A DNA stretch of 64,000 bases from Aliikangiella marina. GTDB taxonomy: Bacteria; Pseudomonadota; Gammaproteobacteria; Enterobacterales; Kangiellaceae. The translations under genes and the position numbers were made by a program. Positions 44,501 through 64,000 of the stretch are shown piece by piece. Position 1 is the first letter of the stretch, and each line of letters opens with the position of its first letter. The DNA is taken from contig NZ_VIKR01000001.1 of the NCBI RefSeq assembly GCF_007004765.1, positions 1,240,001 through 1,304,000 on the forward strand, given 5' to 3'. The notes below the pieces were generated by a model that was not told where the DNA came from, searched no databases, and saw only the letters and a program-made list of their open reading frames with translations.

Positions 44501-45132
44501 ATGTGGTGCATAGTGTATAAAACCAAATGACTATCTAACGTCAAATTAAGCACTTGCATTCGAATCATAACGTCTCTAGTCAGATCAAATGGTGTATTTG
44601 CTTGTAACTCATTAAGTTCACTAATTCGTCTTGATTTTTCCGAGTTACTTAAGTCAGACAAATCATAATGTTTAAATGGCAGTTGAAAATCATTATTTAT
44701 GACCTGAAACGTGTCATCTCCGATAACCTTCAAGTTTGTTCGAAGTACCTCATGTCTTTCGAGCAAAGTTCTAAACGCTCTTTCGAATGCCATTAAATTT
44801 AACTCTCCTTGCAAGAAGAATTGGCCAGGCATATTATATTGAACGGAGTCATTTCCTAACTGCGATATAAACCACAACCGCTGTTGAGCATAGGATAACG
44901 GTAAGTTCTGGTTAGAGTCTCTAGGCTTAATTGGTGGCAAAACATTTAATGTAGGCTTATCTTCAATTTTACTAATGTAACTGATTATTTCCTGTTTATT
45001 GACCTTAATTAGTTCTTTTAACTCATCAGTAAACTTTCCTTTTTCGGCCTTATATTTTAGTTGGCCGTTTTCTAGACTTAAAACAACACCTTGTTGGATA
45101 GCATGAGAGAGAATATCTTTGGCTGATATCAT
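41575..45132 (-). CDS. NRPS-3: single-module synthetase, docking-C-A-T
   Basis: 1185 residues. TubC-type docking domain (VVLSLENGQLKYKAEKG), C domain with HHIASDG, intact A domain with TSGSTGKPKG, YGPTECT, YRTGD and LANGKVNRK, T domain with GGHSLL near 1112, acidic tail ending DIEEFDL. Pocket by eye D-A-R-S-L-S-Q-M-T, with an unusual Arg at the third position; I know no matching residue. Its ATG overlaps the stop of NRPS-2 (ATGA). The tail looks made for a TubC-type docking domain, but the next gene product, NRPS-4, has none, so its true partner may be another protein. Confidence 0.96.
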   Translation of the reverse strand: MISAKDILSHAIQQGVVLSLENGQLKYKAEKGKFTDELKELIKVNKQEIISYISKIEDKPTLNVLPPIKPRDSNQNLPLSYAQQRLWFISQLGNDSVQYNMPGQFFLQGELNLMAFERAFRTLLERHEVLRTNLKVIGDDTFQVINNDFQLPFKHYDLSDLSNSEKSRRISELNELQANTPFDLTRDVMIRMQVLNLTLDSHLVLYTMHHIASDGWSLGIFNKEFAQLYDAFASGEVNPLPELKIQYADYAVWQRNWLKDEQLETQLKYWRNQLADLPFTHQIPLDYPRPVQQSFLGRRKHSLLDQETTKSIYQACQENQVTLFMFLQTVFAVVLSRWSDSNDIVMGTPMSGRTHKDTEDMIGFFINTLVLRTELDKTNDFKQILKNNKEMILDAYAHQYIPFEMLVDELNPDRDLSINPLIQISFVVQNNETVSFELKEKDLSSVGESRGISNQERISIKYELALYVDERADKIALTWVYDDSIFEETTVKSLMLSFEILLKDILKCLCDAEQTEIDVTNLPLSEKLLEFEDNDLGSNHLNNASKVNTIVDLFDAQVSKRPNAIAVSLDNQQLSFFGLQRRSNVIAQYLHERGVKEDQIIGICVERSIDNLALIFAIWRIGAAYVAFDTKLPQKRKEQLILESDIAFLITHENLKEQFIYHNELSLSFIDSDEFKYLSEEWDLKKAISLNPERLAYVVYTSGSTGKPKGVMTKISSVVNYLSYLSNNFEIKTHDRILQLASLPFDASVRDLIGPVVNGAQTILVADKEHKDANLLINKLTKLSITAIFSIVPSFLKSLTYLNGVKNPIDKLRLILISGENLTSDLCLKAKQSFNPKIELVNQYGPTECTMTTTFHRFEEHEVKHNNVFIGKPIDGMKVFLLDKNYHPVPDGAVGEIFISGIGLAAGYLNNESLTNNSFINIDVSKSKTRLYRTGDLARKRDNNVLEFLGRADHQVKIRGNRVELEEIKNVIMKSDLVRESELLVIEDDSAGSQIVAYIIFTKSLEENHEASKDSNEQAVRLISDLKNYLQNLLPDYMLPSYIVNINEMPLLANGKVNRKRLMELEVVNHANSKPEDSPSTETEKQLLGIWSAVLKISAEKIGINDSFFDIGGHSLLAIIVVGQIKAELDLTIELASIFEHQTIFKLASYIDGLQSGKIDDLRRIERLDTIDKDSAGQDIEEFDL

Positions 45133-48100
45133 AGTGTACCTTCTTCAATATCTATATTAGCGCTATTGAGGGCTTCAACGTTCTTTTCTATTTGACTACT
45201 CGATTGCTCAAGAAAAATTCTCTTAGCTATCAATTCAATAGTAGGATCCTCAAAAAGTGCGCGTAGCGGGAACTCAATTTTATATTTCGCTCTGATTTTA
45301 TTAATTAATTTAGTCGCAAGTAACGAATTCCCGCCGGCATCAAAGAAATTTTCATCAACACCTATCAGGTTGATATTTAGGACTTCCGACCAAATCTTAA
45401 CCAACTCCTTCTCTAGATCGCTGGAAGCACCTTTATATCGATTAGAATTTTCAAAATCACTTAATTTAGTAATTTCATTGACGTCAAGATCGCCATTGTC
45501 TAATCGAGGTATCGCGTCTATTTGGCATATATTTCTCGGCAGTGGGTTTAGCGAAATATCATTACGCAGGCTCTCTTGAATTTGATTATTAAATCGACCT
45601 TTGTTTACGCTATCACCCAATTCTTCTTTATTCTTAGTACAAAAATAAAGATCATACGTTGAGGTCTTGTTATTGATATTGATTGCAATAGTTTCTTCTA
45701 TATCCAAACAACTATCAGATAAATAGCGAGTTACCCGTTTACAATCGTGTGATACATTCTTAGTAACACTAGGCGACCCCACTTCGATAAGATTTTTATC
45801 TATTTTCCGAGCGAGCATAGATGTTTTAAATAATACTGAACCAGGTATATCGGCACTCGCATTTGGTCTATATATTGATGCGGCTCTAGCACTGCTAATG
45901 TTCAAGCAAAAAGCATCTTGCGAGTCTTCAATATATAACTCTCCATAAGTTCCCTCAGGCACACTACATCCATTTCTATCTAAAATATATGCATCATTTT
46001 CTGACACTGAATATCGTTTCGAAGAAGGAAGCTTATTTCTTTTGATGCCATCTATACTTCTTAGGATTTCGTTTTTCGAAGCAATTAACGGCTCATCTAC
46101 CACAACTAGCTGGCTATTGCCTGCATCACTTTCTAAAGCGTGTTTTTGTTTTGGATTAAAAACCACATCATGAACAGAATTCCAATCACCTTCAATCATA
46201 GTAGCTGGCCGGTTCATTTTAAAGCATATACATTTCCCGGACATTAATGCCGCAAACATACTACCTAGGTCGAATTCGACACTAGGAGACGACATTTTTT
46301 CTATCTGATTCACATCTATTTGACTGAAGCTGTCTACTAGACGCTTCATTTGCTTGGCCAGCGATTTATAGTTCGTAATATGACCTAAACTTGTAGAAAA
46401 GCTTTCTTCATTGTAGGTTATTATTGCGGAGGCTTTTGCATAATTATTGTAATTGTGGTTATCAATAACTTGGACCTCATTCGACTGGCTAAATGCTTTT
46501 TGTATATCTATTAGTTTGATGAAGTCATGCTTACAAAATGACTCTTCAACAAAACGCTGAGTTTTCGAATCTGTAATCAACAGGGATATTTGACTTGTTT
46601 CAAAGATATAAGCTTTTTTGGAACTAGGATACTCTGGTTTGATTGATACCACACATGCACCACACTTTATCACGGCTAATGCAGAGATTAAGAAATCCAT
46701 CCTCGTATTGACTAAAACACCTACTTTTGATTCTACCTTCACACCATAGCTTTTTAGTAGATTAGCGAGAGAATCAACCCTATTTGCTAATTGCGAGAAT
46801 GTAGCCTGACTGCTAGCTTCTCTAATAGCAATCTCGTGCGGTTTAAGCTTAGCTATCTCGGCAAGTTGATCGAGTGACTCATTCAAATAGCTTACGTTAC
46901 CCGATTTATCGCTTAGGACCTCTTCATTAGGCTTAAATTCCGACGATGGTTCCAACATGTAGCTCGTTGCCGGTTTAGCGCAATGATTGTTATTAAGTAA
47001 GGAATTCACGATTTCACCGACAAAGTGGGTGAAACGCTGCGCCATTGTCACTATTGATTGTCTTTTAAAAAGTGACTTGTTGTATCCCCAGCACAACCCT
47101 AAGGTATCGGTTTTAGGTGTAACCGTAAACTCTAAATCAAAGCGAACGCTGCTGTTACCCGCATAGACCGGTGTTAGTTGCTGGTTACTTTTTCGACTTT
47201 GCAGTACCTGATCAATTTTCCCTAGCTCAATATTTTGAACCGAAAAATAGAGCTGCGTAAGCGGTGACAAAGCAAGATTTCTCTCTGGCTGCAATGCATC
47301 GACAAGCATTTCAAAAGGAACATCTTGATTATTCAAGGCATCTAAGACGCTAACTTTGTTCCTGGCTAACAAAGAGTCAAATGTTTCTGAATCAGATATT
47401 TTGGTTCTAATTAATAATGTATTGATAAAGAAACCTATCAAAGGCTCCAGCTCAAAATAATCCCTTCCTGCGACAGGAACTCCGACGACAATATCATTAC
47501 TAAAACTATAGCGACTAAGAAAGAGTGCATACACTGTTTGCAAAAAGATAAACAGAGTTACATCTTTTTGTTTACATAGTTCGTCGATATCCTTCGCTAT
47601 TTTCTTGTCTAAAACATGATAAATAAGTTCTCCGGCATGAGTTTGCTGTTGCGGCCGGTTGAAATCAAGCGGGAGGTTATGCTGTTTCGGAATACCGCTA
47701 AGATTATGTTTCCAATAAGAAAGTTGTTTCTTTAGTTTTTCACCCTGCAAGCATTGTTTTTGCCATATTGAATAATCTGCATATTGTATATCCAGAGGGA
47801 CAAAAGGCGACGGTTTATTCTGCAAGAAGGCTTGATAATTTTCGTATAGCTCATCTTGGAATATCTTTTTAGACCAGCCATCACTCGCTATATGGTGCAT
47901 CGTGTACAAGATTACAACTTCCTCGTCAGATAGTTGCAATACTCTAGCCCGAACCATTACATCTTGGCGCAAATTAAACGGAGTCATTTCCTCCTGCGCT
48001 ATGTATTGATGAATTTGATGAGTTCTTTCGTCCTTGCTATAACTCGATAAGTTATGAAAAGATAGTGGGGATTCGAATTTTTCATTAATGACTTGTATCG

Positions 48101-51100
48101 TCCCGTCGTCACTCTCTTCAAAAGTTGTTCTTAAAACCTCATGCCTGTTAATTATTGCATCAAGTGCCCTTTGAAAAATTTCGAGACGAAACTGCCCTTT
48201 AATATTAAACCTACCTTTAATATTGTATTGACTGCTACCTTCGCCTAATTGATCAATAAACCATAACCGCTGCTGCGCGTATGATAACGGGAGTTTTTGC
48301 TGTCGCGAAACTTTTATGAGCTGCGATTTACCGGTTTCTTTGGTTGCATTCTCTATAACCAAACATAAACTTTCGATTGTTGCGTTGTCAAATAAGTCCT
48401 TTATCGAAACTTCAGCATTAAACGCTTCTCTAATTTGACTAATCAACCTAGTCGCTAACAGTGAATGCCCACCAATTTTAAAGAAATTTTCATCTACCCC
48501 TACCCTATTGACATCTAATAAATTTTGCCATATGACACACATACGCTTTTGCAGTGAATTTGTTGGTAAACGAACGGATTTTTTTCTCTTAACATCTTCA
48601 TAAGAAGGAAGCATAGAGTAGTCAACCTTCCCATTATTCTCTAACCTTATACTTTCAACAAAAACGATGAAATCCGGCAACTTAACAAGACTCTCTAGGT
48701 TACGAAGAGAGTCAAGTATAATTGAATTAGCGTCTTTACCATCTAAGGTGCTCACTTGTTCAACTACTTCACAAAAGCAAATGTAAGCAAAATCATTATT
48801 TCCTGACCACCTAATTGCTGAATTCTTTACCTGATCTAAAGAAGCTAAGCATCTCATCAACTCAACTTCTAACTGATCACGGTCGAGGTTTGGTATAGTT
48901 TTAGCTTCTAATCCTAAAACCTCGATATGATTAACATCAGTATATCTTGCCAAGTAAGGTGTTTTATAAAACAAATTCGATTTGGAATCAGTGTCTGGAA
49001 GATCGCAATCCACTGCCACGCACTGGCGCTTAAAATTCTCTATTAATAATGAATCGTCGAGTAACAAATTGCCTATGGCGCCCATAGCTTGAGGTCTGCA
49101 ATCTTTATTGACCACTATGCCATTAAAACCATTGTCTCCTAATGTAAATTTTTTATTTTTTATATCTGCAGGCTTAAGTCGTTTTGTTTTAGCCTCTCCT
49201 GCTTGCCACTTACCATCGTAAATACTCTTTAGAATTGCAGTATATTGGGAAAGATTTATACTATTCAGTACCAAACTTGCTGGATTGTCGAGTATGTTTT
49301 TCGTTTTAAGCATGTGACTTAAATACTCATGACTCATCGGAATAAATCGAGGTAAACCTTCTGGTTCTTCACTGATAAGAGTTAGTGCTACATCTGAGCC
49401 AGGACTATTCGCCTTTTCGCTAGTATTAATAGGTTTTAAATCAGAAGACACTGATCCGTCATCATTAAGTTCTATCGCCTTAATATCAGTCGCTAAAAGT
49501 TCTATTAGTTCAGAACCTAAACGACCTTGTGAAATGACTAATTGACTATTACTTAACTCTAGTAAACTAGCAGCTTTAAACTTCGAATATCTGTGATCTA
49601 TTAATAGTATCGTTAGTCCGGACCTTAGCACTGCCAATGTGCTAATTACCTTTGCAATTGGCTCATGACACAATATAGCAACCGGTCTATGCTGATTTGG
49701 ATTAAAATTCACTAAATGTGCACATAGCGCTGCGGCGAAATAGTCTATTTGCTTAATGCTGATAGATTTCCTTTTATGGCTAAGGAAAACTTCTTGTGGC
49801 TTTTCTCTAACTAATAATTCGAAACGTTCATATAGCTTAATTTTTTTATTATTAGAAGCTTGCATCTCAGTAATCGAACGCCTCTTGTCCCACAACCCAC
49901 TCGCTTCTGGCAATAGAATGTCTTTTATCAATAACGACTCATCTAGATCTAGACTCTCTATTTCGTGAGCAATTTTCGTGAACACAAAGCTAAAATATTC
50001 AGATAATCGACTAACATTTCCTTTATTAAAAAGAGACGTATTAAAAGACCAATTTAAGTCAATTCCTTCGTCAAACTCTTTAGCCCTTAGTTCTAAATCA
50101 AACCGAGTTGTACAGTTTTTAAACTCTATTTCCTGTCTATTAGAACTCTTTGATCGCACTTTATACGAATCATCATTCTCATATTCTAAATCTAACACAC
50201 CCGTTTCATTATTCTGCACAGAAAACATAATCTGAAATAGTGGGTTATAACTCAGACTTCTACTAGGCTTTAACTCTTCAACAAGTGATTCAAAAGCAAT
50301 ATGCTGATTAGAATAAGCATCCAGAATTGTATTTTTATTAAGTTCCAAAAACTCGAAAAAGTTATCGTCACCATAAATATTAGATTTCAATACTAAAGTG
50401 TTAACAAAAAAACCAATTAACCCTTCTAAATCTTTATGCAGCCTACCCGCAACAGGAGTTCCCATAACAATTCTAGAACAGCCGCTATACTTAGAAAGTA
50501 AGATTGCAAATACACTTTGCAAAAAGATAAATAGCGTAATATTTTTATCTTCACAGAAAGCTTTAACAATTTTGACAGCCTTACCATCTAGTCGAGTCAT
50601 AAACCTCATACCATTAAATGACTGCTCAGAAGGACGCTCTTTATCCAACGGTAATTTATGAACATCTGGGATATCAGATAATTGCTGACGCCAATAGTTT
50701 AACTGATCTTCTAACAGCTCATCCGTTAACCATTCTCGCTGCCAAACTGAGTAATCAGCATATTGTCGCTTCAGTGGTAAAAGTGTACTTTCTTTACCAT
50801 TCGTCAAACTTGCATAAATATCACTTAGCTCATTTTGGAAAATCGCCATTGACCAACCATCACTAGCAATATGATGTAACGTATACAGTATTAAGTGCAT
50901 ATCATCGGCTATCTTTAGCACTTTAACTCTTAACACCATATCATTTGCTAAATCAAAAGGCGTTTTAGCTTCATCTTGGATTAGCTTAAATACTTTATTT
51001 TGCCTTTCATCGTCTAAAAATTGAGAACAGTCGATTAGCGAAATTGGTAATTCGTAACTATTTTGAATAAACTGAAACGGAGTGCCTTCATAATCTTTAA

Positions 51101-54100
51101 TTACTGTTCTTAATATTTCATGTCTATCAATTAATTGAGCTAAAGCTTCTTTGAATATATCTAAGTCAAATTTGCCGCTTAGCAGATATCGACCGGGCAT
51201 ATTGTATTGGAGACTTCCACCAAGTTTATCTATAAACCAAAGCCTTTGTTGAGCGAATGAAAGCGGTATTCTGCTCGTCCGATCACAGACTTCAATTTTC
51301 GGTAACACAAAGTTATCTTTCTCGAGGTTAAGCTTTTCCGATAAGCCTGCTATTGTAGGGTATTCAAATAAGGTTCTTAATTGGACTTCACGTTGTAGCT
51401 CTTCTCTAATCAAGCTAATTAACCGAGTAGCCAAAAGAGAATGCCCACCTAGCGTAAAGAAATTATCATTAATCCCCACAGCCGTAACACCCAAGATTTT
51501 TGCCCACAGTGTGCACAGCTTTTCCTCAAGCCTATTTCTTGGGGCTTGATATTCGAGCTGCTCAACCGAATCCTGTCCCGGATTAGGTAGGTCTGCTTTA
51601 GCAATCTTACCACTAGGAGTTAACGGCAACTTATCAAGGTATACAAAAAAGGAAGGCACCATGAAATCTGGTAATTTAGACGCTAAATACCGCTTTATGT
51701 TAGATACTTGGTGATTTTTTTGGTTTGGAGGATTATTGGATACAAGATAAGCGACTAAAACCTCCTGCTCTAATTCAGTTTCCTTCACAACCACAACAGA
51801 ATTGTTAATGTCATCTAATTGATTGAGTAAGTATTCAATTTCTCCAAGCTCAATTCTAAAACCTCTCAACTTAACTTGGTCGTCCACTCGACTCAAGAAT
51901 TCAATATCTCCTTGATTTGTCCATCTAACCAAGTCCCCCGTCTTGTACATTTTAGGAGAAAAATCACGTCCAAATGGATTGTCGATAAATTTTTCATTAG
52001 TTACTTCAGGCATATTCAAATAGCCATCCGCTAGACCTTCTCCAGATATATAAAGTTCGCCAGGCACACCAATAGGCTGTAGGTTTTGATACTTATCTAA
52101 GACGTAAAAGTTTACATTACTCAGCGGTGACCCTATTGGAACCGAATGATAGTTCTTAGTCTCTTCCTCGTGACCTGATATTTGATAAATACAACTGCCA
52201 ACCGTCGCTTCAGTTGGTCCGTATTCATTAATGAAAATGCTATTAGGTAGAATTTCATTCACCCATGGTAAAACCGTTGAACAAGTCAATTTCTCTCCCG
52301 CCACGACGATTACATGATTAGCGGAAGAGTTAGTTGAAAGGAATCCAATATCTGATACAGCTTTAAGGTGGGTTGGCGTTATCTTAAACAGCAATCGTTC
52401 TTCATCATCGATTAGATAGTCTGCTAAACTTTCAATCAGGTTCTCATCTTCTGGAATAATTTCTACATACTTGCCAACACATAATGGAAGGTATAAAGAT
52501 TGTACTGTTGCATCAAAAGCGAGCGGTGAACTAACAATAGAGCCGGATAATTGTTCTATAAAAAACGGTTCTTTAATCGCAAATAGGAAGTTAACAACAC
52601 TTCGGTGATTAACTACGACTCCCTTAGGTTTACCCGTTGAACCCGATGTGTAAATCACGTAAGCAGGTTGATGGCTATTCAAATTTATAACATCTCTCGA
52701 TATATTCTCTGCGCTTAAACCTTTTAACTGGTCGAGCGTATTGCTATCATCCAAACAAATCGTAAAATAGTCCTCAAATATAGTCTTTACGAACTTATGT
52801 TTAGTAATAATACAAGCGGCATTGCAGTTTTCTAACATGTACTCAATTCGATCGCGCGGATATGTTGAATCGATCGGCACATAAGCGGCTCCTGATTTTA
52901 ATACGGCCAGTAAGGCAATCATTGCCTCAACTGAGCGATCGATAAATATTACAACCTTTGCACCGTGACTAACACCTGATTGTAGAAGCAAATTTGCTAG
53001 CTGATTAGCTTGGTGGTTAAACTCCTCATAGGTTAGCTCTTGCTCTTCACAGATTACCGCAATATTATTTGGGGACTTTATTACTTGCTCTTCAATCAAT
53101 TCGTGAATGCACGATTTAAGTGGATAATCTGCTTTATTGTTATTCCAGTTTAATAATTGTATATTTTTTTCTTGCTTGGTAATGAATTCTACTTCGTGGA
53201 CACGACAAGATTCACCACCAGATTCTAAAGATTCCACAATCTTTTCAAGAAGACATTCATAGTTTTTCACCATCCTTAGTATTGATTCATCTTCAAAAAG
53301 AGAGTCTCGATATGACCACCTAACACTCAAACCATCAGCTGAATCCTTGACATGAATAGCAAGGTCAAATCGAACGCCAATTTCATTTATGACTTTGATT
53401 GGTTCTTTTTTATCGTTTGCTTTCACTTTCGACTGAGCACTTACAACGCTTTCAGTTTGCACATCAAATAGAATTTGAAACAACGCATTGTAAGTAATAT
53501 TGCGTTCATCAAGCACCTCATCAACTAACATTTCAAATGGAATATGCTGATGTGCATAGGCATCTAATATCATTTGTTTGTTTTTAGAGAGCAATTCTAA
53601 AAAGTTGGGTTCACCACTTAAATCCGTTCTTAATACTAAGGTATTTACAAAAAAACCGATTAAATTTTCAATGTCTTTATGGATCCTACCCGACACCGGG
53701 GTACCCATAACAATATCACTTTGATTACTATAGCGCGAAAGCAAAACACTAAACGCGGTTTGCAAAAACATAAACAAGGTTACCCCTTGCGCCTTAGTAT
53801 GTTTCTTAATTTTATCAACCAAGTTTGGGTTGATAGTTTGCTTAAAACCTCGGCCCGAATTGGTTTGTTTATTTGGTCTTTTTTTATCTAACGGTAAACT
53901 ATGAACTGTAGGCAATTCATTCAAATTGCTTTTCCAAAATTCCAGTTGTGATTCTAAGACCGCTCCACTTAACCACTTCTTTTGCCAAGCTGCGTAGTCT
54001 ACATATTGATAGGCAATTGCTTGCAATGGGGATTGTTTTTTCTCATTAAACGCATCATACAGAATGCTAAGCTCTCTCTTGAAAATGTCAATTGACCAAG

Positions 54101-57100
54101 CATCACCAGCTATATGATGAATAGTATAAAAAATCGAGTGAAGGGATTGGCTGAGCTTAGCAACCTTAACTCGGATCATTAAATCGCTGTCTAATTGAAA
54201 AGGTTGGTTGGCTTCTTGCGAAGAAATCTCATTTAATTTTATATTAATATCGTCAGATTTAAATCTAGACAAATCGAAATATTGGTAGGGGATCTCATAT
54301 TGCTCTAAAATCTTCTGTACAGGCTGCCCATCTACCGATAAATAAGTTGTTCTAAGTATTTCATGGCGTTTAATTAAATATTCTAAAGCATTGTAAAACG
54401 CACTCTGATTAAAATCCTTCTCAATTGTAAATCGGCCGCGCATGTTATATTCAGTACTTCCCTCACCAAGCTGGTCGACAAACCAAAGTCTTTGTTGCGC
54501 ATATGAGAGCGGCAATTGTCCCTTTCTCTCTACTTTCTCTAGGTTAGGCAAAACAAACTCGCCCTGCAAACTAGTGATTACCTCTGCAAGGGTTGCAACT
54601 GTGGGAGCTTCAAATAGCATTCGTATCTGAATTTCCGCTGCAAATTGTTGACGAATAGCGCTGATTAAACGAGTTGCTAGTAAAGAATGTCCGCCCAAAG
54701 AAAAGAAATTATCATGAATACCCACCTTTGAAATATTTAAGATATTTTGCCAAATTTCACATAAACTCTGCTCAACTTCATTAGAGGGAGGTACATATTT
54801 TTCTTTTTGAATATCTGTCTCATTAGGTAGTGGCAGTACTTTCTTATTAACTTTACCGTTAATAGTCAGTGGTAGCTTTTCGAGAACAACAAAAAACGAG
54901 GGTAACATATAAGAAGGGAGCTTTTCTAATAGATGATTAGCCACACTTTTAGAGAGCCCACTTCCTATTTTATCAAGTCTTGGATAATTTATGAGATAGC
55001 TTTCTTTATATTCAGATCGGGCAAGGACTTCAGGTAGTGAATCCCGACTAATAATTACATCAAGCTTATCTTTAGCTGATTGTGACCAAGTTACCGCAAT
55101 CTTATACCCTTTATCTTCGGCTAGCCTAAATTGTGACTCTAACCAATCGATTTTTTCTTGCGTAGTTAGACTTAACTTCCCTGCTGATGCTTGTGGATGA
55201 ATCAGACGGCTTGACTGCCAATTCTTTAAGCCCAGACATAATGCAAAATCTTCATCCAATCTTGGATTAGGAATGCCACTGATTGCGGCAACATGATCAT
55301 CTAGATTACAGATTAACGCCTCAAAATCCGACCTTGACGTAAAATTTTGCCATTCAACTTGCTGCCTGGAATCCTGATTGGCGTCCTTACTTTTCTTGGT
55401 AATAACCACTTCATAACGATAACGATTCATCTCGTTATCACCAACGCCGCGTTTCACCATAATATCTACTTGGGCGATGGTGTTAAATCGAGCTTTTAGG
55501 TTACCAAAGTAACTTGGACTTACAAGTAATTCCTGTTCCTGTTGGATTCGTCTCTGTACACGATTAGAAAAAACACTAAGTGTTGTACTTTGAGTAAGTC
55601 TACTTTGCTCTACCGCACATACGTGCGATGTGAATAAATCTAAGTTACGAATATCTCCAAGCAGAAGCTTGCCACCTTCACATAACACACTTAGCGCATT
55701 ATTTAAAACGGTCTCAAAATAAAGACGATTAGGAAAATACTGCGCAACAGAATTGATTACAATACAATCAAATTGTCGGTTGTGAAATGACTCCGATATA
55801 CTTAGGGCATCCCCCTGTATTAACTCGATATGCTTCCAATCTTTCGCGGAAATACCTTTACTCACGTTAGCTAATGCTTCTTTTGAAATATCAACTGCAG
55901 TTACGGATTCACATGAACTAGCATAACGAAACAACAGCAACCCGGTACCACACCCAATCTCTAATAGGTTACGAGGACGCAGTGATTGAATAACGCTAAT
56001 GGTAGCATCAAGCCATTCGTCCATTTGCTCTATTTCTATGGCCTGCATGGTGTAACTACTATCCCACCCGGAATAATTTGCTTCTATGACGGGTACATCA
56101 TCTTCATTGTAGGTATCATTAAATACTTCAGTCCATTGATTTACATTATCTTTGATAGTTTCTTTTGACGTCTTTTCTAAATATTCATTCGAAGGACATA
56201 GATAGGCAATTAACTGCTGATTGGAATCTCCGTCACCACTGGCTATAACGGCATTACTGGAAATGTCTGTGTGTTCAGAAATTGAGCATTCGATATCACC
56301 TAGCTCGATCCTAAACCCACGAACTTTAACCTGTTCATCGACTCTTTTGACAAACTCCAATTGCCCATTATGACACCGTTTCACTAAATCACCTGTTTTA
56401 TATAGGCGACTTCCTTTTCTCTTTGCATATGGGTTGGGTATAAACTTTCTTGCCGTTAAACTCGCTTGATTAATATATCCATTACTTACACCGTCACCAC
56501 CTATATAAAGTTCACCGACAACACCATCCGGCTGAGGCTGTAAGTGCGCATTAAGAACATAAAGTTGCGTATTATTAATAGGGTTTCCTATGGATACTGA
56601 GTTTTGCTCTCGCAATAACGGCTTACTAAAAGCTTGTTTTTCACAAGTATGTATACAACAACCGACGGTAGTTTCAGTCGGTCCATACTCATTGATTATT
56701 GAACACAATGGAAATTTATCAAACCATTGAGAAGCGGTTTCTGTTGTGAGTTGTTCACCTCCAACTACAAAAACATGTTCAGACTTAACATTTGTCTCTA
56801 ATAAATCATTGCTAAGTACGGCTTTTAAATGAGAGGGGGTAAGTTTGAATAACAGATCATCAGAGTCATCTACAATACAATCAATCAATGAATCAATCGA
56901 CGCACTATCATCATCAAGTAACTCGATATACTTACCATAGCATAGCGGTATAAATAGTGAACACACGGTAGCATCAAAAACTAGCGCGGTAGTTACTACG
57001 GCTCCCACAATGTTTTCCGTAAGATAACTCTTACCATGTTGTATATAATTAATTACATTTCTGTGATTGACCATTACGCCTTTCGGTGTTCCGGTGGAGC

Positions 57101-59201
57101 CAGAAGTGTAAATAATATAAGCAAGTAAATTACTAGAGCTGCGATCCGCAAAAGCTAGTTCGTGTGAAAATTTAGTAAGCTCGCTGCGAGAATGATGATC
57201 GTCTAATGCCAAATAATTGATATTCAAATCAGTAAAAAGTGCTAAAGTCGCATTATTTCCAATAACTATATTTGCACCACTATCTTTTAATACAAATTTG
57301 ATTCTTGACTTAGGGGTTTGAGGGTCAATAGGTACGTAAGCGGCTCCGGCCTTGAGTATAGCGAATATCGCGACCACCATATCGATTGAGCGATGTATAC
57401 AAAGTCCAATGACATCTGATTGTTTCACTCCATGAACAACTAGATAATTAGCTAATCGATTAGCCTCTTGATTTAATGTTTTAAAAGTAATTTCGTTATC
57501 ATTGTCAATAACAGCGATTGAATTTGGATTTTTACTTGCTTGCAATTCAATAAGCTGATGTAAGGCGATTGATCTATCATAGTCTGCATCAGTATCATTC
57601 CAATGATAAAGCGTATTTAATTCTTTTGATTTTGACAAAAGCGATAGTTCGTGAATTCCTGCATGCTTCGTCTTTATCCGACTACAATCTCTAAAGACAT
57701 TTTCAATTAAAGTACAAAAGCTATTTGATAAATTTTCTATACTACACGAGTCAAATAGCTTTAAATTGTATACCCAGCGTAATGAAATCCCCGCATCTGA
57801 CTCATTAACATGCAACTCAAGATCAAATCGTGTTTTAGCGAAATGAGAATTTGAAGGCGATCCCTTTTTAAGCGTTCCTTTGCCCTCTGCAACGACTTCC
57901 CCAGACTGCCAACTCCCCCTCTCATTGTTTTGTACAACAAATAGAATCTGAAATATTGGGTTGTAACTTAGATCTCTTTCAGGTCGTATATTTTCGACCA
58001 ACATCTCAAAAGGTATGTGCTGATTTGTAAAAGCATCAAGGATTGTCTCTTTGTTTTTAGCTAAAAAAGACATAAAAGATAGATTATCTTTCAAATTACT
58101 TCGAAGCACTAATGAATTAACAAAAAATCCGATAAGGCCCTCAACATCATTATGAGTTCTACCTGAAATTGGCGTCCCAATAACGACATCTTTTTCATTA
58201 CTAAATCGAGCTACTATTATTGCGAAGATGGTTTGTAAAAAAATATACAATGTAATGTCATGTTTTTTACAAAAATCTATAATCTGTTTTGACAGACTTC
58301 TTTCGATATCTTGACTAAATCTACTAGCGTCATAAGTCTGTTGAAGAGGTCGGGGTTTATCAAGCGGCAGTCTATGTAAATTGGGAATGCCACTTAACTG
58401 TTCAAGCCAATATTTTTTTTGCTCTTGTAATACGCTACCCTCTAACCATTGCTTTTGCCATAAAGCATAATCAGCATATTGAATTCTTAGTGGTTCAAGG
58501 GGGTTTGGTTTGCCATCACGATAAGCCTGATATAAGCTCGACAACTCATTCTGCAAAATTCGCATCGACCAACCATCGCTCGCAATATGATGTTGTGTGT
58601 AAAGAACAATAAAATGTTTAGGCCCCACTTTAATTAATTGGACTCTAAGCATCAAATCCTTACTCAGATCAAATGGTGTAGTCGCTTCCAATTCAATTAA
58701 ACGATTTATTTCTTTACTTTTTGATTCATCACTTAATTTTTCTAGATCATGAAATTTAAATGGCAATACATACTCGCAGACGATAACCTGCCTGGGTTCA
58801 CCATTTAGTTCACTAAAATGAGTTCTCAGAACTTCATGCCGTTCAATGAGTTCATTGAGGGCTTTTTCAAATGCAGGCACATTAATTGATTCAAATATTT
58901 GAAAACGACCGGGGATATTATATTGGACACTGCTTCCGCCCAACTTATCTAAAAACCACAACCTTTGTTGCGCATAAGACAGCCACGGAACATACTTCGC
59001 GCCCTCTCCTTCCGCTTCAATATCAAAAAATTTTGGATTTTCGCTAAGAAAGTCAATAAGAGCTTGTTTGTTAACTTTAATTTTTTCGCGTAAAGATTCA
59101 GAAAGTCTACCTTTTTCCCCTTTAGCGATTAACTTACCATTTGAGAGAAATAACTTTATGCCAGTACTTTTTGCATCTAACAATATGTTCTCTACATTCA
59201 A
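45129..59201 (-). CDS. NRPS-2: four-module synthetase, docking-C-A(MT)-T-C-A-T-C-A*-T-C-A*-T, last two A domains degenerate
   Basis: 4690 residues from a TTG with AGGAG eight bases upstream. TubC-type docking domain; four C domains (HHIASDG, HHIAGDA, HHIASDG, HHIASDG); four T domains with intact Ser (near 1503, 2585, 3577, 4621); tail ending IDIEEGTL. Module 1 has a SAM methyltransferase inserted in its A domain (GCGTG near 1082), pocket D-A-C-K-V-G-E-V-G; module 2 pocket is D-A-Q-K-V-A-E-V-G. Both resemble the Asn code D-L-T-K-V-G-E-V-G, so Asn/Asp or a similar beta-substituted Ala is likely, N-methylated in module 1. The A domains of modules 3 (about 3085-3530) and 4 (about 4095-4560) have lost TSGSTGKPKG, YGPTE and YRTGD; module 4 also lacks the late catalytic Lys. 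Those two modules cannot plausibly adenylate an amino acid themselves. Confidence 0.96.
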   Translation of the reverse strand: MNVENILLDAKSTGIKLFLSNGKLIAKGEKGRLSESLREKIKVNKQALIDFLSENPKFFDIEAEGEGAKYVPWLSYAQQRLWFLDKLGGSSVQYNIPGRFQIFESINVPAFEKALNELIERHEVLRTHFSELNGEPRQVIVCEYVLPFKFHDLEKLSDESKSKEINRLIELEATTPFDLSKDLMLRVQLIKVGPKHFIVLYTQHHIASDGWSMRILQNELSSLYQAYRDGKPNPLEPLRIQYADYALWQKQWLEGSVLQEQKKYWLEQLSGIPNLHRLPLDKPRPLQQTYDASRFSQDIERSLSKQIIDFCKKHDITLYIFLQTIFAIIVARFSNEKDVVIGTPISGRTHNDVEGLIGFFVNSLVLRSNLKDNLSFMSFLAKNKETILDAFTNQHIPFEMLVENIRPERDLSYNPIFQILFVVQNNERGSWQSGEVVAEGKGTLKKGSPSNSHFAKTRFDLELHVNESDAGISLRWVYNLKLFDSCSIENLSNSFCTLIENVFRDCSRIKTKHAGIHELSLLSKSKELNTLYHWNDTDADYDRSIALHQLIELQASKNPNSIAVIDNDNEITFKTLNQEANRLANYLVVHGVKQSDVIGLCIHRSIDMVVAIFAILKAGAAYVPIDPQTPKSRIKFVLKDSGANIVIGNNATLALFTDLNINYLALDDHHSRSELTKFSHELAFADRSSSNLLAYIIYTSGSTGTPKGVMVNHRNVINYIQHGKSYLTENIVGAVVTTALVFDATVCSLFIPLCYGKYIELLDDDSASIDSLIDCIVDDSDDLLFKLTPSHLKAVLSNDLLETNVKSEHVFVVGGEQLTTETASQWFDKFPLCSIINEYGPTETTVGCCIHTCEKQAFSKPLLREQNSVSIGNPINNTQLYVLNAHLQPQPDGVVGELYIGGDGVSNGYINQASLTARKFIPNPYAKRKGSRLYKTGDLVKRCHNGQLEFVKRVDEQVKVRGFRIELGDIECSISEHTDISSNAVIASGDGDSNQQLIAYLCPSNEYLEKTSKETIKDNVNQWTEVFNDTYNEDDVPVIEANYSGWDSSYTMQAIEIEQMDEWLDATISVIQSLRPRNLLEIGCGTGLLLFRYASSCESVTAVDISKEALANVSKGISAKDWKHIELIQGDALSISESFHNRQFDCIVINSVAQYFPNRLYFETVLNNALSVLCEGGKLLLGDIRNLDLFTSHVCAVEQSRLTQSTTLSVFSNRVQRRIQQEQELLVSPSYFGNLKARFNTIAQVDIMVKRGVGDNEMNRYRYEVVITKKSKDANQDSRQQVEWQNFTSRSDFEALICNLDDHVAAISGIPNPRLDEDFALCLGLKNWQSSRLIHPQASAGKLSLTTQEKIDWLESQFRLAEDKGYKIAVTWSQSAKDKLDVIISRDSLPEVLARSEYKESYLINYPRLDKIGSGLSKSVANHLLEKLPSYMLPSFFVVLEKLPLTINGKVNKKVLPLPNETDIQKEKYVPPSNEVEQSLCEIWQNILNISKVGIHDNFFSLGGHSLLATRLISAIRQQFAAEIQIRMLFEAPTVATLAEVITSLQGEFVLPNLEKVERKGQLPLSYAQQRLWFVDQLGEGSTEYNMRGRFTIEKDFNQSAFYNALEYLIKRHEILRTTYLSVDGQPVQKILEQYEIPYQYFDLSRFKSDDINIKLNEISSQEANQPFQLDSDLMIRVKVAKLSQSLHSIFYTIHHIAGDAWSIDIFKRELSILYDAFNEKKQSPLQAIAYQYVDYAAWQKKWLSGAVLESQLEFWKSNLNELPTVHSLPLDKKRPNKQTNSGRGFKQTINPNLVDKIKKHTKAQGVTLFMFLQTAFSVLLSRYSNQSDIVMGTPVSGRIHKDIENLIGFFVNTLVLRTDLSGEPNFLELLSKNKQMILDAYAHQHIPFEMLVDEVLDERNITYNALFQILFDVQTESVVSAQSKVKANDKKEPIKVINEIGVRFDLAIHVKDSADGLSVRWSYRDSLFEDESILRMVKNYECLLEKIVESLESGGESCRVHEVEFITKQEKNIQLLNWNNNKADYPLKSCIHELIEEQVIKSPNNIAVICEEQELTYEEFNHQANQLANLLLQSGVSHGAKVVIFIDRSVEAMIALLAVLKSGAAYVPIDSTYPRDRIEYMLENCNAACIITKHKFVKTIFEDYFTICLDDSNTLDQLKGLSAENISRDVINLNSHQPAYVIYTSGSTGKPKGVVVNHRSVVNFLFAIKEPFFIEQLSGSIVSSPLAFDATVQSLYLPLCVGKYVEIIPEDENLIESLADYLIDDEERLLFKITPTHLKAVSDIGFLSTNSSANHVIVVAGEKLTCSTVLPWVNEILPNSIFINEYGPTEATVGSCIYQISGHEEETKNYHSVPIGSPLSNVNFYVLDKYQNLQPIGVPGELYISGEGLADGYLNMPEVTNEKFIDNPFGRDFSPKMYKTGDLVRWTNQGDIEFLSRVDDQVKLRGFRIELGEIEYLLNQLDDINNSVVVVKETELEQEVLVAYLVSNNPPNQKNHQVSNIKRYLASKLPDFMVPSFFVYLDKLPLTPSGKIAKADLPNPGQDSVEQLEYQAPRNRLEEKLCTLWAKILGVTAVGINDNFFTLGGHSLLATRLISLIREELQREVQLRTLFEYPTIAGLSEKLNLEKDNFVLPKIEVCDRTSRIPLSFAQQRLWFIDKLGGSLQYNMPGRYLLSGKFDLDIFKEALAQLIDRHEILRTVIKDYEGTPFQFIQNSYELPISLIDCSQFLDDERQNKVFKLIQDEAKTPFDLANDMVLRVKVLKIADDMHLILYTLHHIASDGWSMAIFQNELSDIYASLTNGKESTLLPLKRQYADYSVWQREWLTDELLEDQLNYWRQQLSDIPDVHKLPLDKERPSEQSFNGMRFMTRLDGKAVKIVKAFCEDKNITLFIFLQSVFAILLSKYSGCSRIVMGTPVAGRLHKDLEGLIGFFVNTLVLKSNIYGDDNFFEFLELNKNTILDAYSNQHIAFESLVEELKPSRSLSYNPLFQIMFSVQNNETGVLDLEYENDDSYKVRSKSSNRQEIEFKNCTTRFDLELRAKEFDEGIDLNWSFNTSLFNKGNVSRLSEYFSFVFTKIAHEIESLDLDESLLIKDILLPEASGLWDKRRSITEMQASNNKKIKLYERFELLVREKPQEVFLSHKRKSISIKQIDYFAAALCAHLVNFNPNQHRPVAILCHEPIAKVISTLAVLRSGLTILLIDHRYSKFKAASLLELSNSQLVISQGRLGSELIELLATDIKAIELNDDGSVSSDLKPINTSEKANSPGSDVALTLISEEPEGLPRFIPMSHEYLSHMLKTKNILDNPASLVLNSINLSQYTAILKSIYDGKWQAGEAKTKRLKPADIKNKKFTLGDNGFNGIVVNKDCRPQAMGAIGNLLLDDSLLIENFKRQCVAVDCDLPDTDSKSNLFYKTPYLARYTDVNHIEVLGLEAKTIPNLDRDQLEVELMRCLASLDQVKNSAIRWSGNNDFAYICFCEVVEQVSTLDGKDANSIILDSLRNLESLVKLPDFIVFVESIRLENNGKVDYSMLPSYEDVKRKKSVRLPTNSLQKRMCVIWQNLLDVNRVGVDENFFKIGGHSLLATRLISQIREAFNAEVSIKDLFDNATIESLCLVIENATKETGKSQLIKVSRQQKLPLSYAQQRLWFIDQLGEGSSQYNIKGRFNIKGQFRLEIFQRALDAIINRHEVLRTTFEESDDGTIQVINEKFESPLSFHNLSSYSKDERTHQIHQYIAQEEMTPFNLRQDVMVRARVLQLSDEEVVILYTMHHIASDGWSKKIFQDELYENYQAFLQNKPSPFVPLDIQYADYSIWQKQCLQGEKLKKQLSYWKHNLSGIPKQHNLPLDFNRPQQQTHAGELIYHVLDKKIAKDIDELCKQKDVTLFIFLQTVYALFLSRYSFSNDIVVGVPVAGRDYFELEPLIGFFINTLLIRTKISDSETFDSLLARNKVSVLDALNNQDVPFEMLVDALQPERNLALSPLTQLYFSVQNIELGKIDQVLQSRKSNQQLTPVYAGNSSVRFDLEFTVTPKTDTLGLCWGYNKSLFKRQSIVTMAQRFTHFVGEIVNSLLNNNHCAKPATSYMLEPSSEFKPNEEVLSDKSGNVSYLNESLDQLAEIAKLKPHEIAIREASSQATFSQLANRVDSLANLLKSYGVKVESKVGVLVNTRMDFLISALAVIKCGACVVSIKPEYPSSKKAYIFETSQISLLITDSKTQRFVEESFCKHDFIKLIDIQKAFSQSNEVQVIDNHNYNNYAKASAIITYNEESFSTSLGHITNYKSLAKQMKRLVDSFSQIDVNQIEKMSSPSVEFDLGSMFAALMSGKCICFKMNRPATMIEGDWNSVHDVVFNPKQKHALESDAGNSQLVVVDEPLIASKNEILRSIDGIKRNKLPSSKRYSVSENDAYILDRNGCSVPEGTYGELYIEDSQDAFCLNISSARAASIYRPNASADIPGSVLFKTSMLARKIDKNLIEVGSPSVTKNVSHDCKRVTRYLSDSCLDIEETIAININNKTSTYDLYFCTKNKEELGDSVNKGRFNNQIQESLRNDISLNPLPRNICQIDAIPRLDNGDLDVNEITKLSDFENSNRYKGASSDLEKELVKIWSEVLNINLIGVDENFFDAGGNSLLATKLINKIRAKYKIEFPLRALFEDPTIELIAKRIFLEQSSSQIEKNVEALNSANIDIEEGTL

Positions 59202-59564: not shown

Positions 59565-59578
59565 TTATTATTGATTTC

Positions 59579-61594: not shown

Positions 61595-61685
61595 GTAAGA
61601 AGTTTCTCCTTAAAGCTTGAGCTATGAAAAGCTTCATAACACGTTAAGAAATAACGCGCGCACTAATCCTGACAGCTCGCTGCTG

Positions 61686-61720
61686 ACTTTGTAAATTTAT
61701 AACACTAGAGGTTACAAAGT
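61686..61720. repeat. Inverted repeat, 9-base arms
   Basis: ACTTTGTAA at 61686-61694 and TTACAAAGT at 61712-61720, perfect arms with a 17-base spacer, about 90 bases upstream of the carbamoyltransferase start. Size and spacing would suit a regulator site or an mRNA stem. Confidence 0.4.
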
Positions 61721-61736
61721 TGAGACAATACTCAAC
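61719..61736. repeat. Short hairpin, GTTGAG/CTCAAC
   Basis: Perfect 6-base arms with a 6-base loop, overlapping the end of the neighbouring inverted repeat by two bases. On the minus strand it is followed by TTTG only. Confidence 0.35.
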
Positions 61737-61805
61737 CTACTCAAAGTATGGTTACTTTTGATATTAGCTTGTAATTATTGCTTTTTTAAATCAATACCAG
61801 AGAGC

Positions 61806-61820
61806 TGTTACGCAGTAACA
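61806..61820. repeat. Short hairpin, TGTTAC/GTAACA
   Basis: Perfect 6-base arms with the 3-base loop GCA, in the region after NRPS-1. No T-run follows on the minus strand. Confidence 0.35.
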
Positions 61821-61934
61821 TCACCATCATACTTGCATGTTAATCTAAAGTAAATTCCAATGTTAATCGCCAAAAAAAATATCTCCAATAAAGATACCTG
61901 CCGTAAATGTTTTACTTTCAGCAATTAATATTAC

Positions 61935-64000
61935 TCAAAACTCTACTTCCTCGAAATCTTTACCGCCCTCTTGGTGACGCTCTACCTTTTTAATGGTTGG
62001 TACCACTGACTGCTCATTACTTGCATTAATCTTTGAGCATAATTCTGCAATGGTAGGTGATTCAAATAATAACTTTATCTCCAGTTCGACTTGTAACTCT
62101 TTTCTAATGTGACTAATAACCCGAGTTGCTATCAATGAATTCCCCCCAAGTTCAAAAAAGTTGTCGTTGATTCCAACTTGTTTTGCATTTAAGGCGCCTT
62201 TCCAAATATCGCAAAGTAGCTCTTCTTGCTGATTTCGAGGCTTGACATATATGCTAGATTCATTATTGATCGGAAGATGTATCTCTAAATCATTACTATT
62301 GATGCTACCGTCTTCATGATAATTAAAATGGTCAACCTTCATAATATGAGTTGGAATGGGAACCAGCTCTGATTGATTTTTAGCTACAGCATAAATACGA
62401 TTATTTAAGTTTTTATTACCACTTTCTCGTTCATTTTGATTTAGTTTTAAGTAACAGGCGTAATGGATTCTATTTTGACTTTGAATCGCTTTAATGAAAA
62501 CGTCATCCGTTAACTGACTTTGTTTGAGCAATTGTTCTAATTTGTCAAAAGAATAAACCCTAGCCTTCTCACTCGAACTAATTATCTCAATTAAGCGATT
62601 GGGTAATACTCTAGCTAAAAAGCCACTGTTATATAATCTTTGACCAGACGACTGTGCAAACTGATTGGGGATAAAACACTCAGCGGTTAGACTAGCATTC
62701 TTTGCGTAACCTAATGATATATCTGAAAACGAAATAAATAAGTTTCCTATACCACCTTCCGGTACAGCACTTAAGTCTGCATTTAAAATGTAACACGGTA
62801 AATTAGTATGATTTTTGACGACCAATACATCTTTGTGTTGTTTGCCATCCAATAGAAATTGCTCAGCCTGTATATCTTTAATAACTGATAAATGACTCGC
62901 AAAAAGACAACGGTTAATGAATGATTTAAATAAATCGCCACTATTGATACTGGTATTACCGATAGAGTTAACATTATTTACTACGGAGCTAGTAGACTCT
63001 GAAAAATCAATTACTTCATTGCGAGCTAGCATTACTAAATAATCAAATATTTGTACACTCGCTTGCGATTCTTTCGATAAGTCCTGAATACCTGGAAGCC
63101 TCTCATTAAATGACAATAGAGAATTCACGGATTCAATTAAAACGCTATGTGATATATCATAGTCATCACGACGACTACCAGACTCACTAGTTTGGTTGAT
63201 TATCAACGCTCTAGTACTTGGTTTGATGAAATCTTTATTCAAGTTTGCGGACGAATATTTAGATGATATCTCGAATTCTATAAAATTAAAATCTTGAGAG
63301 AAGTATCTCGCCAGTCGACTAGGCAGATCTCTATTTGATTCTTGTAAACCGAATAAAAGAGTTTTTACGTTATACTTTTCTATTAAGTGATAAATTTTTA
63401 ATCTAGGTAGTTCTTCTGGTAAATAAATAACACTTGCGCCAGTCTTTAATACTGCTAGAAGACTAATCAAAAACTCATTTGATGGTTTTATAAACAACGC
63501 AACAACTTGGCTTCCATCGACATTTTTCTCTTTTAATTTTCTTGCTAGCTGATTTGCCCGGCCGTTTAACGACTCTAAAGTCATACCGCCGTTGTTATCT
63601 TGTGCGACTAACTGTTCTGGATTGCTCTGTGCTTGTTTTTCGATGAGCTCCATTAAGTTGTTAGCCTTTGTACCAGGCGAATTATTACAATCAGATTTTA
63701 AGTATCGAATACCATTATGATCACTTAGATTTATTCGATTTACATAGGTTTCCGGTAAATGCAAATCACTAACTGGCTTATTGACATCTTCAATAGCACC
63801 CTTTAATAGCCCAACATATCTAAGTAGCATTTTTTCAATAGTTGACTCCTCATACAACGACTTATTGTAATTTATTGTACAAAGAGTACCTTTTAGATCC
63901 TCAGATATCACTAAGCCGATGTCAGTATTTGAGTAAACAATATTAGAGAGTAAACTATTGTAGTCATTGGACTGAGTTTTAAGCGTTTCAGCTTTTGCGT
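61935..64000 (-). CDS. NRPS-1: partial synthetase, end of a C domain, degenerate A domain, T domain
   Basis: The frame is open to the right edge (688 codons); a GTG at 63911 is internal, because the upstream residues continue the end of a C domain. An A-like domain follows (about residues 105-580), then a T domain with GGNSLI near 621 and an acidic tail ending FEEVEF. The A-like domain is eroded: in place of the phosphate loop TSGSTGKPKG it reads NQTSESGSRRDD, no YGPTE is seen, the YRTGD position reads YNSGF, and the late catalytic Lys is Ser (HEDGSINS). The T domain keeps its Ser, so the carrier may be loaded from elsewhere. The tail matches the short acidic docking motif, and NRPS-2 has the matching kind of N-terminal domain. 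How many modules lie upstream is unknown. Confidence 0.92.
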   Translation of the reverse strand, partial: AKAETLKTQSNDYNSLLSNIVYSNTDIGLVISEDLKGTLCTINYNKSLYEESTIEKMLLRYVGLLKGAIEDVNKPVSDLHLPETYVNRINLSDHNGIRYLKSDCNNSPGTKANNLMELIEKQAQSNPEQLVAQDNNGGMTLESLNGRANQLARKLKEKNVDGSQVVALFIKPSNEFLISLLAVLKTGASVIYLPEELPRLKIYHLIEKYNVKTLLFGLQESNRDLPSRLARYFSQDFNFIEFEISSKYSSANLNKDFIKPSTRALIINQTSESGSRRDDYDISHSVLIESVNSLLSFNERLPGIQDLSKESQASVQIFDYLVMLARNEVIDFSESTSSVVNNVNSIGNTSINSGDLFKSFINRCLFASHLSVIKDIQAEQFLLDGKQHKDVLVVKNHTNLPCYILNADLSAVPEGGIGNLFISFSDISLGYAKNASLTAECFIPNQFAQSSGQRLYNSGFLARVLPNRLIEIISSSEKARVYSFDKLEQLLKQSQLTDDVFIKAIQSQNRIHYACYLKLNQNERESGNKNLNNRIYAVAKNQSELVPIPTHIMKVDHFNYHEDGSINSNDLEIHLPINNESSIYVKPRNQQEELLCDIWKGALNAKQVGINDNFFELGGNSLIATRVISHIRKELQVELEIKLLFESPTIAELCSKINASNEQSVVPTIKKVERHQEGGKDFEEVEF

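What the first reader, a model, noticed from the sequence alone, without database searches (positions are those of the whole stretch)
45129..64000. Three NRPS modules with eroded adenylation domains but sound C and T domains
The A domains of the last NRPS-1 module and of NRPS-2 modules 3 and 4 have each lost the phosphate-binding loop, YGPTE and the ATP-binding TGD motif, and two also lost the late Lys. Yet the frame is intact over hundreds of residues, the visible C domains keep HHxxxDG and all three T domains keep the Ser. Neutral decay would also be expected to bring stops and damage to C or T. This suggests the modules are used and their carriers are loaded by another A domain (NRPS-2 module 2 is the nearest intact one), as a single A domain does in yersiniabactin synthesis. 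Repeated trans-loading would put the same residue in several places. Module skipping is the other option.
Basis: partly seen in the sequence, partly recalled or inferred. Interest (0 to 1): 0.8.

Follow-up and report, generated by a model that had tools for sequence, protein, structure and literature searches.

The report
NRPS modules with dead loading domains
In a very large bacterial peptide-making assembly line, about a quarter of the stations have lost the domain that picks and loads their amino acid but keep their joining and carrier parts in good order, which suggests that they are loaded by a domain borrowed from elsewhere, a trick known from a few pathways and here seen at up to twelve stations.

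Summary
The three adenylation (A) domains named are dead, with sound C and T domains. They are 3 of 12 dead A domains among 47 modules of a ~185 kb NRPS region: six near full length but eroded, five cut down to motifs A6-A10, one a C-terminal scrap. A-profile scores are bimodal (intact 467-623 bits, dead -2 to 152), while C and T scores do not differ between the classes. Two methyltransferases inside dead modules and the epimerase after another are intact, which argues against skipping. A sister genome holds one dead A copied at 97% identity between two otherwise unlike modules. Of seven held genomes of the genus, the three with dead A domains are the three with a SyrB/SyrC-like stand-alone A, T, halogenase and hydrolase cassette. 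Best reading: the carriers are loaded by other A domains; which ones is not shown. The kind is known (SidD/SidC, albicidin, syringomycin, capreomycin); the number, the decay series and the copied dead A are the new part.

The parts
45129..59201 (-). NRPS gene, 4690 aa: four modules, the last two with dead A domains
52017..53093 (-). intact A domain of module 2 (SGSTGKPK, YGPTE, YKTGDL; pocket DAQKVAEVGK, positions by a recalled GrsA segment)
49953..51269 (-). C domain of module 3, HHIASDG intact
48615..49952 (-). dead A domain of module 3 (446 aa); A3, A5, A7 lost, A10 NGK kept
48375..48614 (-). T domain of module 3, GGHSL
46998..48293 (-). C domain of module 4, HHIASDG intact
45468..46997 (-). 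dead A domain of module 4 (510 aa); A3, A5, A7, A10 lost
45237..45467 (-). T domain of module 4, GGNSL
61935..64000 (-). C-terminal end of the 5549-aa NRPS gene (C1:1301935-1318584), last module
63759..64000 (-). in-window part of a truncated second C-like domain (about 250 aa matched, no HHxxxD) before the dead A
62268..63758 (-). dead A domain of 5549 module 4 (497 aa); A3, A5, A7, A10 lost
62049..62267 (-). T domain of 5549 module 4, GGNSL

Best explanation
The modules with dead A domains are working C-T stations whose carrier is aminoacylated by an A domain that lies elsewhere: a 'trans-A' layout covering 12 of 47 modules. Shown: these A domains cannot work as known A domains (P-loop and A5 lost in all 12, A7 lost in all but 8991_m3, A10 Lys mostly lost, and in six the A1-A5 core is missing altogether), while C, T and the attached MT and E domains are kept. 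Inferred: the carriers are loaded in trans or between modules. The part most often kept, A6-A10 next to the T domain, probably stays as a spacer or scaffold. The likeliest loaders are intact A domains of neighbouring modules, as in SidD/SidC, and, for at least one station, the stand-alone A + T + SyrB2-like halogenase + Cys-type alpha/beta hydrolase cassette upstream of the first NRPS gene (C1:1386165-1389743), whose A pocket reads like a valine pocket (recalled code). The loaders are not identified here.
For: 12 dead A domains with a bimodal score split; C (medians 482 vs 492, 12 vs 33, p=0.62) and T (94.9 vs 91.9, 12 vs 35, p=0.60) of dead and intact modules alike. All 47 T domains keep Ser and the 12 C domains of dead modules keep HHxxxD. 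The MT domains in dead 8991_m3 and 7224_m4 keep the GCGTG motif and are 52% identical to each other, pN 0.33, pS 0.75. The E domain after dead 8991_m5 keeps HHLVVDGVSW, GWFT, FNYLG. Six full-length dead A domains: GC1 0.446 and first-position purine 0.622, against 0.397 and 0.588 in neutral decay simulated to the same motif loss; 0 of 5000 means of six reach either. Motif loss is uneven: retention 0.47 before A3, 0.23 in A3-A5, 0.35 after (8 domains; p=5e-6 and 0.004). Sister genome G001: dead A copied between modules, dN 0.021, dS 0.070, 21 of 1000 neutral simulations as low. Cassette in the same three of seven genus genomes as dead A domains. In 11 of 12 cases an intact A lies upstream in the same polypeptide.
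Against: No product and no loading assay. T domains of dead modules do not cluster (11 changes against 10.8 in shuffles) and are not nearer the T of the upstream intact module (p=0.95), so no recognition signature for any loader was found. One dead module (1936_m1) starts its polypeptide, as do the G001 1086-aa one and the G006 one, so loading from the same polypeptide cannot be general. Only one cassette for 12 stations. No orthologous cluster was found, so constraint could not be tested at these positions. In the composition test GC2 does not differ from neutral (864 of 5000), and three of the six domains taken singly are reached by 8, 8 and 1 of 87 simulations. That test shows constraint on the protein, not a function.
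Confidence: 0.62

Rival explanations
1. Module skipping: the chain passes over the dead modules, which stay because they are physically part of the polypeptide.
For: Skipping is known in NRPSs (mentioned in a passage of PMC8097286). No loader was identified. A-domain loss recurs: on the C tree the dead label needs 8 changes, at least 4 by well-supported branches.
Against: All 12 C domains keep HHxxxD and all 12 T domains keep Ser, with scores like intact modules. MT inside two dead modules and E after one are intact and would have no substrate.
Confidence: 0.2
2. One loader for all: the SyrB1/SyrB2/SyrC-like cassette (stand-alone A, T, halogenase, Cys hydrolase) feeds every dead module with valine or chlorovaline.
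For: The halogenase matches SyrB2 (E 1.5e-120) and CytC3 and shares their H-Q-A stretch (that this is the halogenase triad is recalled). A pocket DAFWLGGTFK in G000 and, read by eye, the same in G001 and G006. Separate T in all three. GYCSGAG hydrolase. Cassette and dead A domains occur in the same 3 of 7 genomes of the genus.
Against: Twelve like residues would be needed. T domains of dead modules do not cluster. SyrC serves one station in syringomycin (PMC8949500 section 4.1).
Confidence: 0.12
3. Neutral decay in progress: the A domains are pseudogene-like and the modules are on the way out; the frame stays open only because downstream modules are needed.
For: The A domains are no longer adenylation enzymes; sizes form a gradient; one attached C-like domain is truncated too.
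Against: First-position composition far from the neutral expectation; dN/dS 0.31 in the copied pair, 21 of 1000 neutral simulations as low; C, T, MT and E not decayed.
Confidence: 0.06

Closest known systems
Fungal siderophore NRPSs SidD, Nps6, SidC and Sib1 with degenerate A domains (dA) and inter-module loading
   Same: Truncated dA lacking about 290 N-terminal residues; full-length dA with lost motifs; repeated independent A losses with C and T kept (passages of PMC10192304 and PMC2644324). The cut A domains here lack A1-A5 in the same way.
   Different: Fungal, with one to three such positions in the passages read, and loading by another module's A shown for SidD and SidC; here bacterial, 12 of 47 modules, loader unknown, MT and E kept in or after dead modules.
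Albicidin / cystobactamid NRPS: inactive A complemented in trans by a stand-alone [A-T]
   Same: A present but not functional because of low core-motif conservation (PMC8949500 section 4.1). G001 carries a 611-aa [A-T] between the genes of its two dead modules and the next NRPS gene.
   Different: One position; the alpha-ANH-like extension described there was not sought; in the window's own cluster A and T of the cassette are separate genes.
Syringomycin SyrB1/SyrB2/SyrC and the ninth module of SyrE
   Same: Stand-alone A, T, halogenase (SyrB2 homologue), Cys-type hydrolase; a C-T acceptor with almost no A left (2943_m2).
   Different: SyrB1 is an A-T didomain; homology of the hydrolase to SyrC was not tested by sequence; 12 candidate acceptors.
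Capreomycin CmnI / CmnA-A1 and WS9326A trans A domains
   Same: Bacterial A-less modules served by another module's or a stand-alone A domain (passages of PMC12400406 and PMC7539972).
   Different: CmnI lacks its A domain and the WS9326A module is a C-PCP didomain; no series of eroded A domains in the passages read.
Yersiniabactin synthetase
   Same: One A loading several carriers (recalled, no call).
   Different: Not examined here.

Membership tests
Degenerate-A (dA) modules with inter-module loading, SidD/SidC type | A domain present but without catalytic motifs, or lacking its N-terminal core | tested here: met
   12 of 12 (2943_m2, 7224_m4 and 7224_m6 hardly score on the A profile; their remnants rest mainly on position and on sequence read by eye)
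Degenerate-A (dA) modules with inter-module loading, SidD/SidC type | C and T of the same module intact | tested here: met
   12 of 12
Degenerate-A (dA) modules with inter-module loading, SidD/SidC type | intact A upstream in the same polypeptide | tested here: inconclusive
   11 of 12 in the window's cluster (P=0.04 for so few at the start of a polypeptide); not so for the G001 1086-aa module nor the G006 one
Degenerate-A (dA) modules with inter-module loading, SidD/SidC type | demonstrated loading of the T domain by another module's A | not testable with these tools
   needs biochemistry
SyrB1/SyrB2/SyrC trans-aminoacylation | non-haem iron halogenase of the SyrB2 kind with H-x-A triad | tested here: met
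   alignments to 2fct and 3gja (meaning of the triad recalled)
SyrB1/SyrB2/SyrC trans-aminoacylation | stand-alone A and T outside the assembly line | tested here: met
   as two genes, not the SyrB1 didomain
SyrB1/SyrB2/SyrC trans-aminoacylation | aminoacyl shuttle of the SyrC/CmaE kind | tested here: inconclusive
   alpha/beta hydrolase with Cys at the nucleophile elbow, GYCSGAG; that SyrC and CmaE use Cys is recalled; no sequence comparison with SyrC; PDB search gave only weak alpha/beta hydrolase and chance-like hits
SyrB1/SyrB2/SyrC trans-aminoacylation | acceptor module C-T without working A | tested here: met
   2943_m2 and 11 others; which module accepts is unknown
Albicidin-type stand-alone [A-T] complementation | separate [A-T] didomain in the cluster | tested here: not met
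   not seen in the window's cluster (A and T are separate genes); present in G001
Module skipping | decayed C or T in the skipped module (expected, not strictly defining) | tested here: not met

The most novel reading that the evidence does not exclude
This bacterial lineage is turning a cis-A assembly line into a 'trans-A' one, the NRPS counterpart of trans-AT polyketide synthases: A domains die repeatedly and independently, pass through a common series (core eroded, core deleted, C-terminal scrap next to the T domain kept as scaffold), and dead A domains themselves can be copied by recombination from module to module as blank cassettes that hand a station over to a shared loader.
Probability: 0.3. 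Interest if true: 0.82.

Novelty: new variant of a known kind. Interest (0 to 1): 0.62.

Why it matters
Product prediction from NRPS genes rests on one working A domain per module. Here a quarter of the stations break that rule while their other parts look functional, so a predictor would drop up to 12 residues. The natural series of A remnants shows which parts of an A domain a module can lose while keeping C and T, useful for engineering. If dead A cassettes spread by recombination, this is a way for assembly lines to hand specificity to a shared loader.

Tried and rejected
Stop-free frame as evidence of use: rejected, because stops would also remove downstream parts of the same polypeptide. 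dN/dS between dead A domains of the window's genome: not tried, they are too diverged (weak hits of 18-28% identity; 21-26%), and synonymous sites are saturated or nearly so even for the MT domains. An orthologous cluster: none found; 5 of 7 genus genomes (own included) give hits to the dead A of 4690_m3, those other than itself at 18-28% identity, and the 27 loci from genome contigs are distant NRPSs (best segments 23-35% identity; kin very near the window's genome may be left out there). The G001 dead A has no match at E<=1e-60 in 40 family genomes other than its own two copies. T-domain signature for a shared loader: none. A second stand-alone A elsewhere in the genome (C4:547904) exists but lies beside genes that look unrelated by eye. 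Two G002 A domains flagged by a motif filter look like ordinary variants by eye (one of the two printed). The AlphaFold model of A*-T of 4690_m3 (pLDDT 63, 11 rows, 8 of them intact A-T, so biased towards the A fold) has a fair N-lobe (about residues 41-170), a confident T domain and a poor centre (about 171-270); Foldseek finds NRPS A-T structures. It fits the sequence result but was not used as independent evidence.

Limits: the home-made C, A and T profiles come from this cluster and favour it; C scores leave out two modules without a full C (3003_m1, 8991_m2). The 77-module baseline (27 loci, 26 with C..T modules) was fetched by patterns from the query itself. The 170-bit cut for 'low A' was set; the G006 case scores 163 and was judged dead by eye. 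Genus modules are those in stretches fetched around PF00668 hits; G001:C11 and modules cut by contig ends are not counted. The neutral simulation depends on fourfold-site composition and kappa 4. The block ends for dN/dS were set, and it is one pair. Literature: 10 searches; I make no claim that a bacterial case of this size is unpublished beyond those.
Full report
WHAT IS THERE. The window is C1:1240001-1304000 of a 5.3 Mb genome. It lies inside an NRPS region of about 185 kb (C1:1199317-1382637) whose NRPS genes are all on the minus strand. With profiles built from the region's own domains I find 47 modules with a T domain in 15 genes: 33 modules in a run of ten genes and 14 in a run of five, plus one stand-alone A gene (503 aa) upstream. 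Thirty-five A domains are intact and 12 are dead: 8991_m3, 8991_m5, 4649_m2, 4649_m3, 2943_m2, 5549_m4, 4690_m3, 4690_m4, 7224_m4, 7224_m6, 1936_m1, 1927_m2 (names: protein length, module). Three more that a motif filter flagged (4649_m4, 2943_m3, 4460_m2) were read and counted as intact.

THE SPLIT IS SHARP. Scores against profiles of the other modules: A domains, intact 467-623 bits (35), dead -2 to 152 (12). C domains: dead median 482, intact 492 (12 and 33; p=0.62). T domains: dead 94.9, intact 91.9 (12 and 35; p=0.60). The 12 C domains that precede dead A domains keep HHxxxD and all 47 T domains keep the Ser motif.

A DECAY SERIES. Six dead A domains are near full length (412-510 aa between C and T). 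Five are cut to A6-A10 (206, 209 and 211 aa; in two more the piece is followed by an MT), one keeps 143 aa. Four of the cut ones match the A profile from position 348-350 and a fifth from 319, i.e. A1-A5 are gone; for two of these (7224_m4, 7224_m6; 7.5 bits each) and for the 143-aa scrap (-2.4 bits) the match is weak or nil. In eight full-length dead A domains (six here, one each from G001 and a Burkholderiales MAG) near-invariant columns are kept at 75/160 before A3, 45/192 in A3-A5 and 130/368 after A5 (Fisher p=5e-6 and 0.004 against A3-A5): the catalytic centre has gone further than its flanks.

NOT NEUTRAL DNA. Simulated neutral decay of intact A genes, stops forbidden, to the same loss of invariant columns (0.306) gives GC1 0.397 (sd 0.021) and first-position purine 0.588; the six full-length dead A domains have 0.446 and 0.622; 0 of 5000 means of six simulations reach either. 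GC2 does not differ (864 of 5000). Singly, GC1 of three of the six is reached by 8, 8 and 1 of 87 simulations, of the other three by none. This shows constraint on the protein, not its role.

DEAD MODULES KEEP THEIR TAILORING DOMAINS. Six methyltransferases of one kind occur; two sit in dead modules. They keep the SAM motif (GCGTG) and are each other's closest relatives (52%), pN 0.33 with pS 0.75, saturated. Both modules share one odd layout, C - A6-A10 remnant - A8 tail/MT - T (by eye), and their C domains pair as well (99/81), so an A-less MT module was probably duplicated and both copies kept. The E domain after dead 8991_m5, one of three E domains compared, keeps its motifs. These would be idle if the modules were skipped.

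REPEATED LOSS. On the C tree the dead label needs 8 changes (shuffled mean 10.7; 7 of 500 as low), at least 4 by starred branches. On the T tree it is scattered like chance (11 against 10.8; 72 columns, poorly resolved).

RELATIVES. No orthologous cluster was found. In the same genus, 53 C..T modules from five other genomes (28, 14, 1, 5, 5; G005 has no C domain) gave four with low A score: two in G001 and one in G006 are eroded A domains, and one in G001 is a C-T without A remnant. In 27 named loci from other groups, 77 modules gave three: two clean C-T and one eroded full-length A (L045, Burkholderiales MAG). The window's region has 12 of 46 by the same filter (p=5e-4 against 3 of 77; the baseline is biased, see limits).

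A DEAD A COPIED BETWEEN MODULES. In G001 (C14:98502-101759 and the third module of C14:101743-112584) a 433-codon dead A is 97% identical at the DNA level in both modules (41 of 1299 positions differ; 25-codon windows 92-100%), with edges at the C-A and A-T linkers; the C and T domains on either side are about 40% identical proteins. 20 synonymous and 21 nonsynonymous differences, dN 0.021, dS 0.070, ratio 0.31; neutral simulation expects 27.9 (sd 3.0) nonsynonymous, 21 of 1000 runs as low. PMC8097286 (passages) reports that natural exchanges mostly hit the A core and spare the C-A linker and Asub-T interface; here the shared block spans the whole A domain.

A CANDIDATE LOADER. Upstream of the first NRPS gene lie a SyrB2-like halogenase (E 1.5e-120 to SyrB2, shared H-Q-A), a stand-alone T, a stand-alone A with pocket DAFWLGGTFK, a valine pocket by recalled tables (best PDB relative linear gramicidin synthase A), and an alpha/beta hydrolase with Cys in the nucleophile elbow. 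The hydrolase occurs at E<=1e-10 in 3 of 40 genomes of the family, all in this genus (G000, G001, G006), and at E<=1e-15 in 1 of 369 genomes drawn from the class, the window's own. The other cassette genes sit beside it in G001 and G006. The same three of seven genus genomes have dead A domains; chance 1 in 35 by hand, but two of the other four have almost no NRPS (2 and 0 C domains). G001 also has a stand-alone [A-T] in the operon of its dead modules.

OTHER LOADERS. In 11 of 12 cases an intact A lies upstream in the same polypeptide; only one dead module is first (P=0.041 for so few). But T domains of dead modules are not more like the T of that upstream module (p=0.95), and in G001 (1086 aa) and G006 a dead module is first in its polypeptide.

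COMPARISON. Truncated or degenerate A domains with loading from another module are established for fungal SidD and SidC (passages of PMC10192304 and PMC2644324), a dead A complemented by a stand-alone [A-T] is proposed for albicidin (PMC8949500 section 4.1, read whole), a shuttle-fed C-T is described for syringomycin (same), and bacterial trans-loading for capreomycin and WS9326A (passages). So the mechanism proposed is of a known kind. The variant lies in the number, in the series of remnants with sound MT and E, and in a dead A that moved between modules.

Noticed in passing
window 32567-41578 (-): The 3003-aa NRPS starts with an eroded half C domain followed by an intact A-T; the A-T of modules 1 and 2 is 100% identical in DNA over about 600 codons, a very recent copy. 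A live A-T without a working C is the mirror image of the dead-A modules.
   Followed up: partly
window 63759-64000 and C1:1312324-1313670, C1:1229732-1231051: A second C-like domain with HHxxxDR sits between C and A in 5549_m2 and 7224_m5 (A pockets DFWNIGMVHK) and, cut to about half, in dead 5549_m4; perhaps a recruitment domain.
   Followed up: partly
C1:1199317-1382637: 47 modules in one region; the 33-module run ends with a 229-aa extension (TE-like by position only) and would be among the largest NRPS lines known to me (recalled).
   Followed up: no
window 9081-12493 (-): ABC transporter with a C39 peptidase domain and an HlyD-type partner in an NRPS cluster.
   Followed up: no
window 59579-61594 (-): Carbamoyltransferase between the two NRPS genes with dead modules.
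   Followed up: no
window 12957-18586 (-): PLP-dependent enzyme, two TauD-type oxygenases, Asp/Glu racemase-like protein and two overlapping CmcI-type methyltransferase ORFs between the two NRPS runs.
   Followed up: no
C1:1355662-1382637, first 1450 aa of the 8991-aa protein: Methyltransferase-like parts and four carrier-like repeats with DSMEL motifs before the first C domain (by eye).
   Followed up: no
L045 protein 2309-15538, aa 3776-4286: A full-length eroded A domain between C and T in a Burkholderiales MAG, an unrelated case of the same thing.
   Followed up: partly
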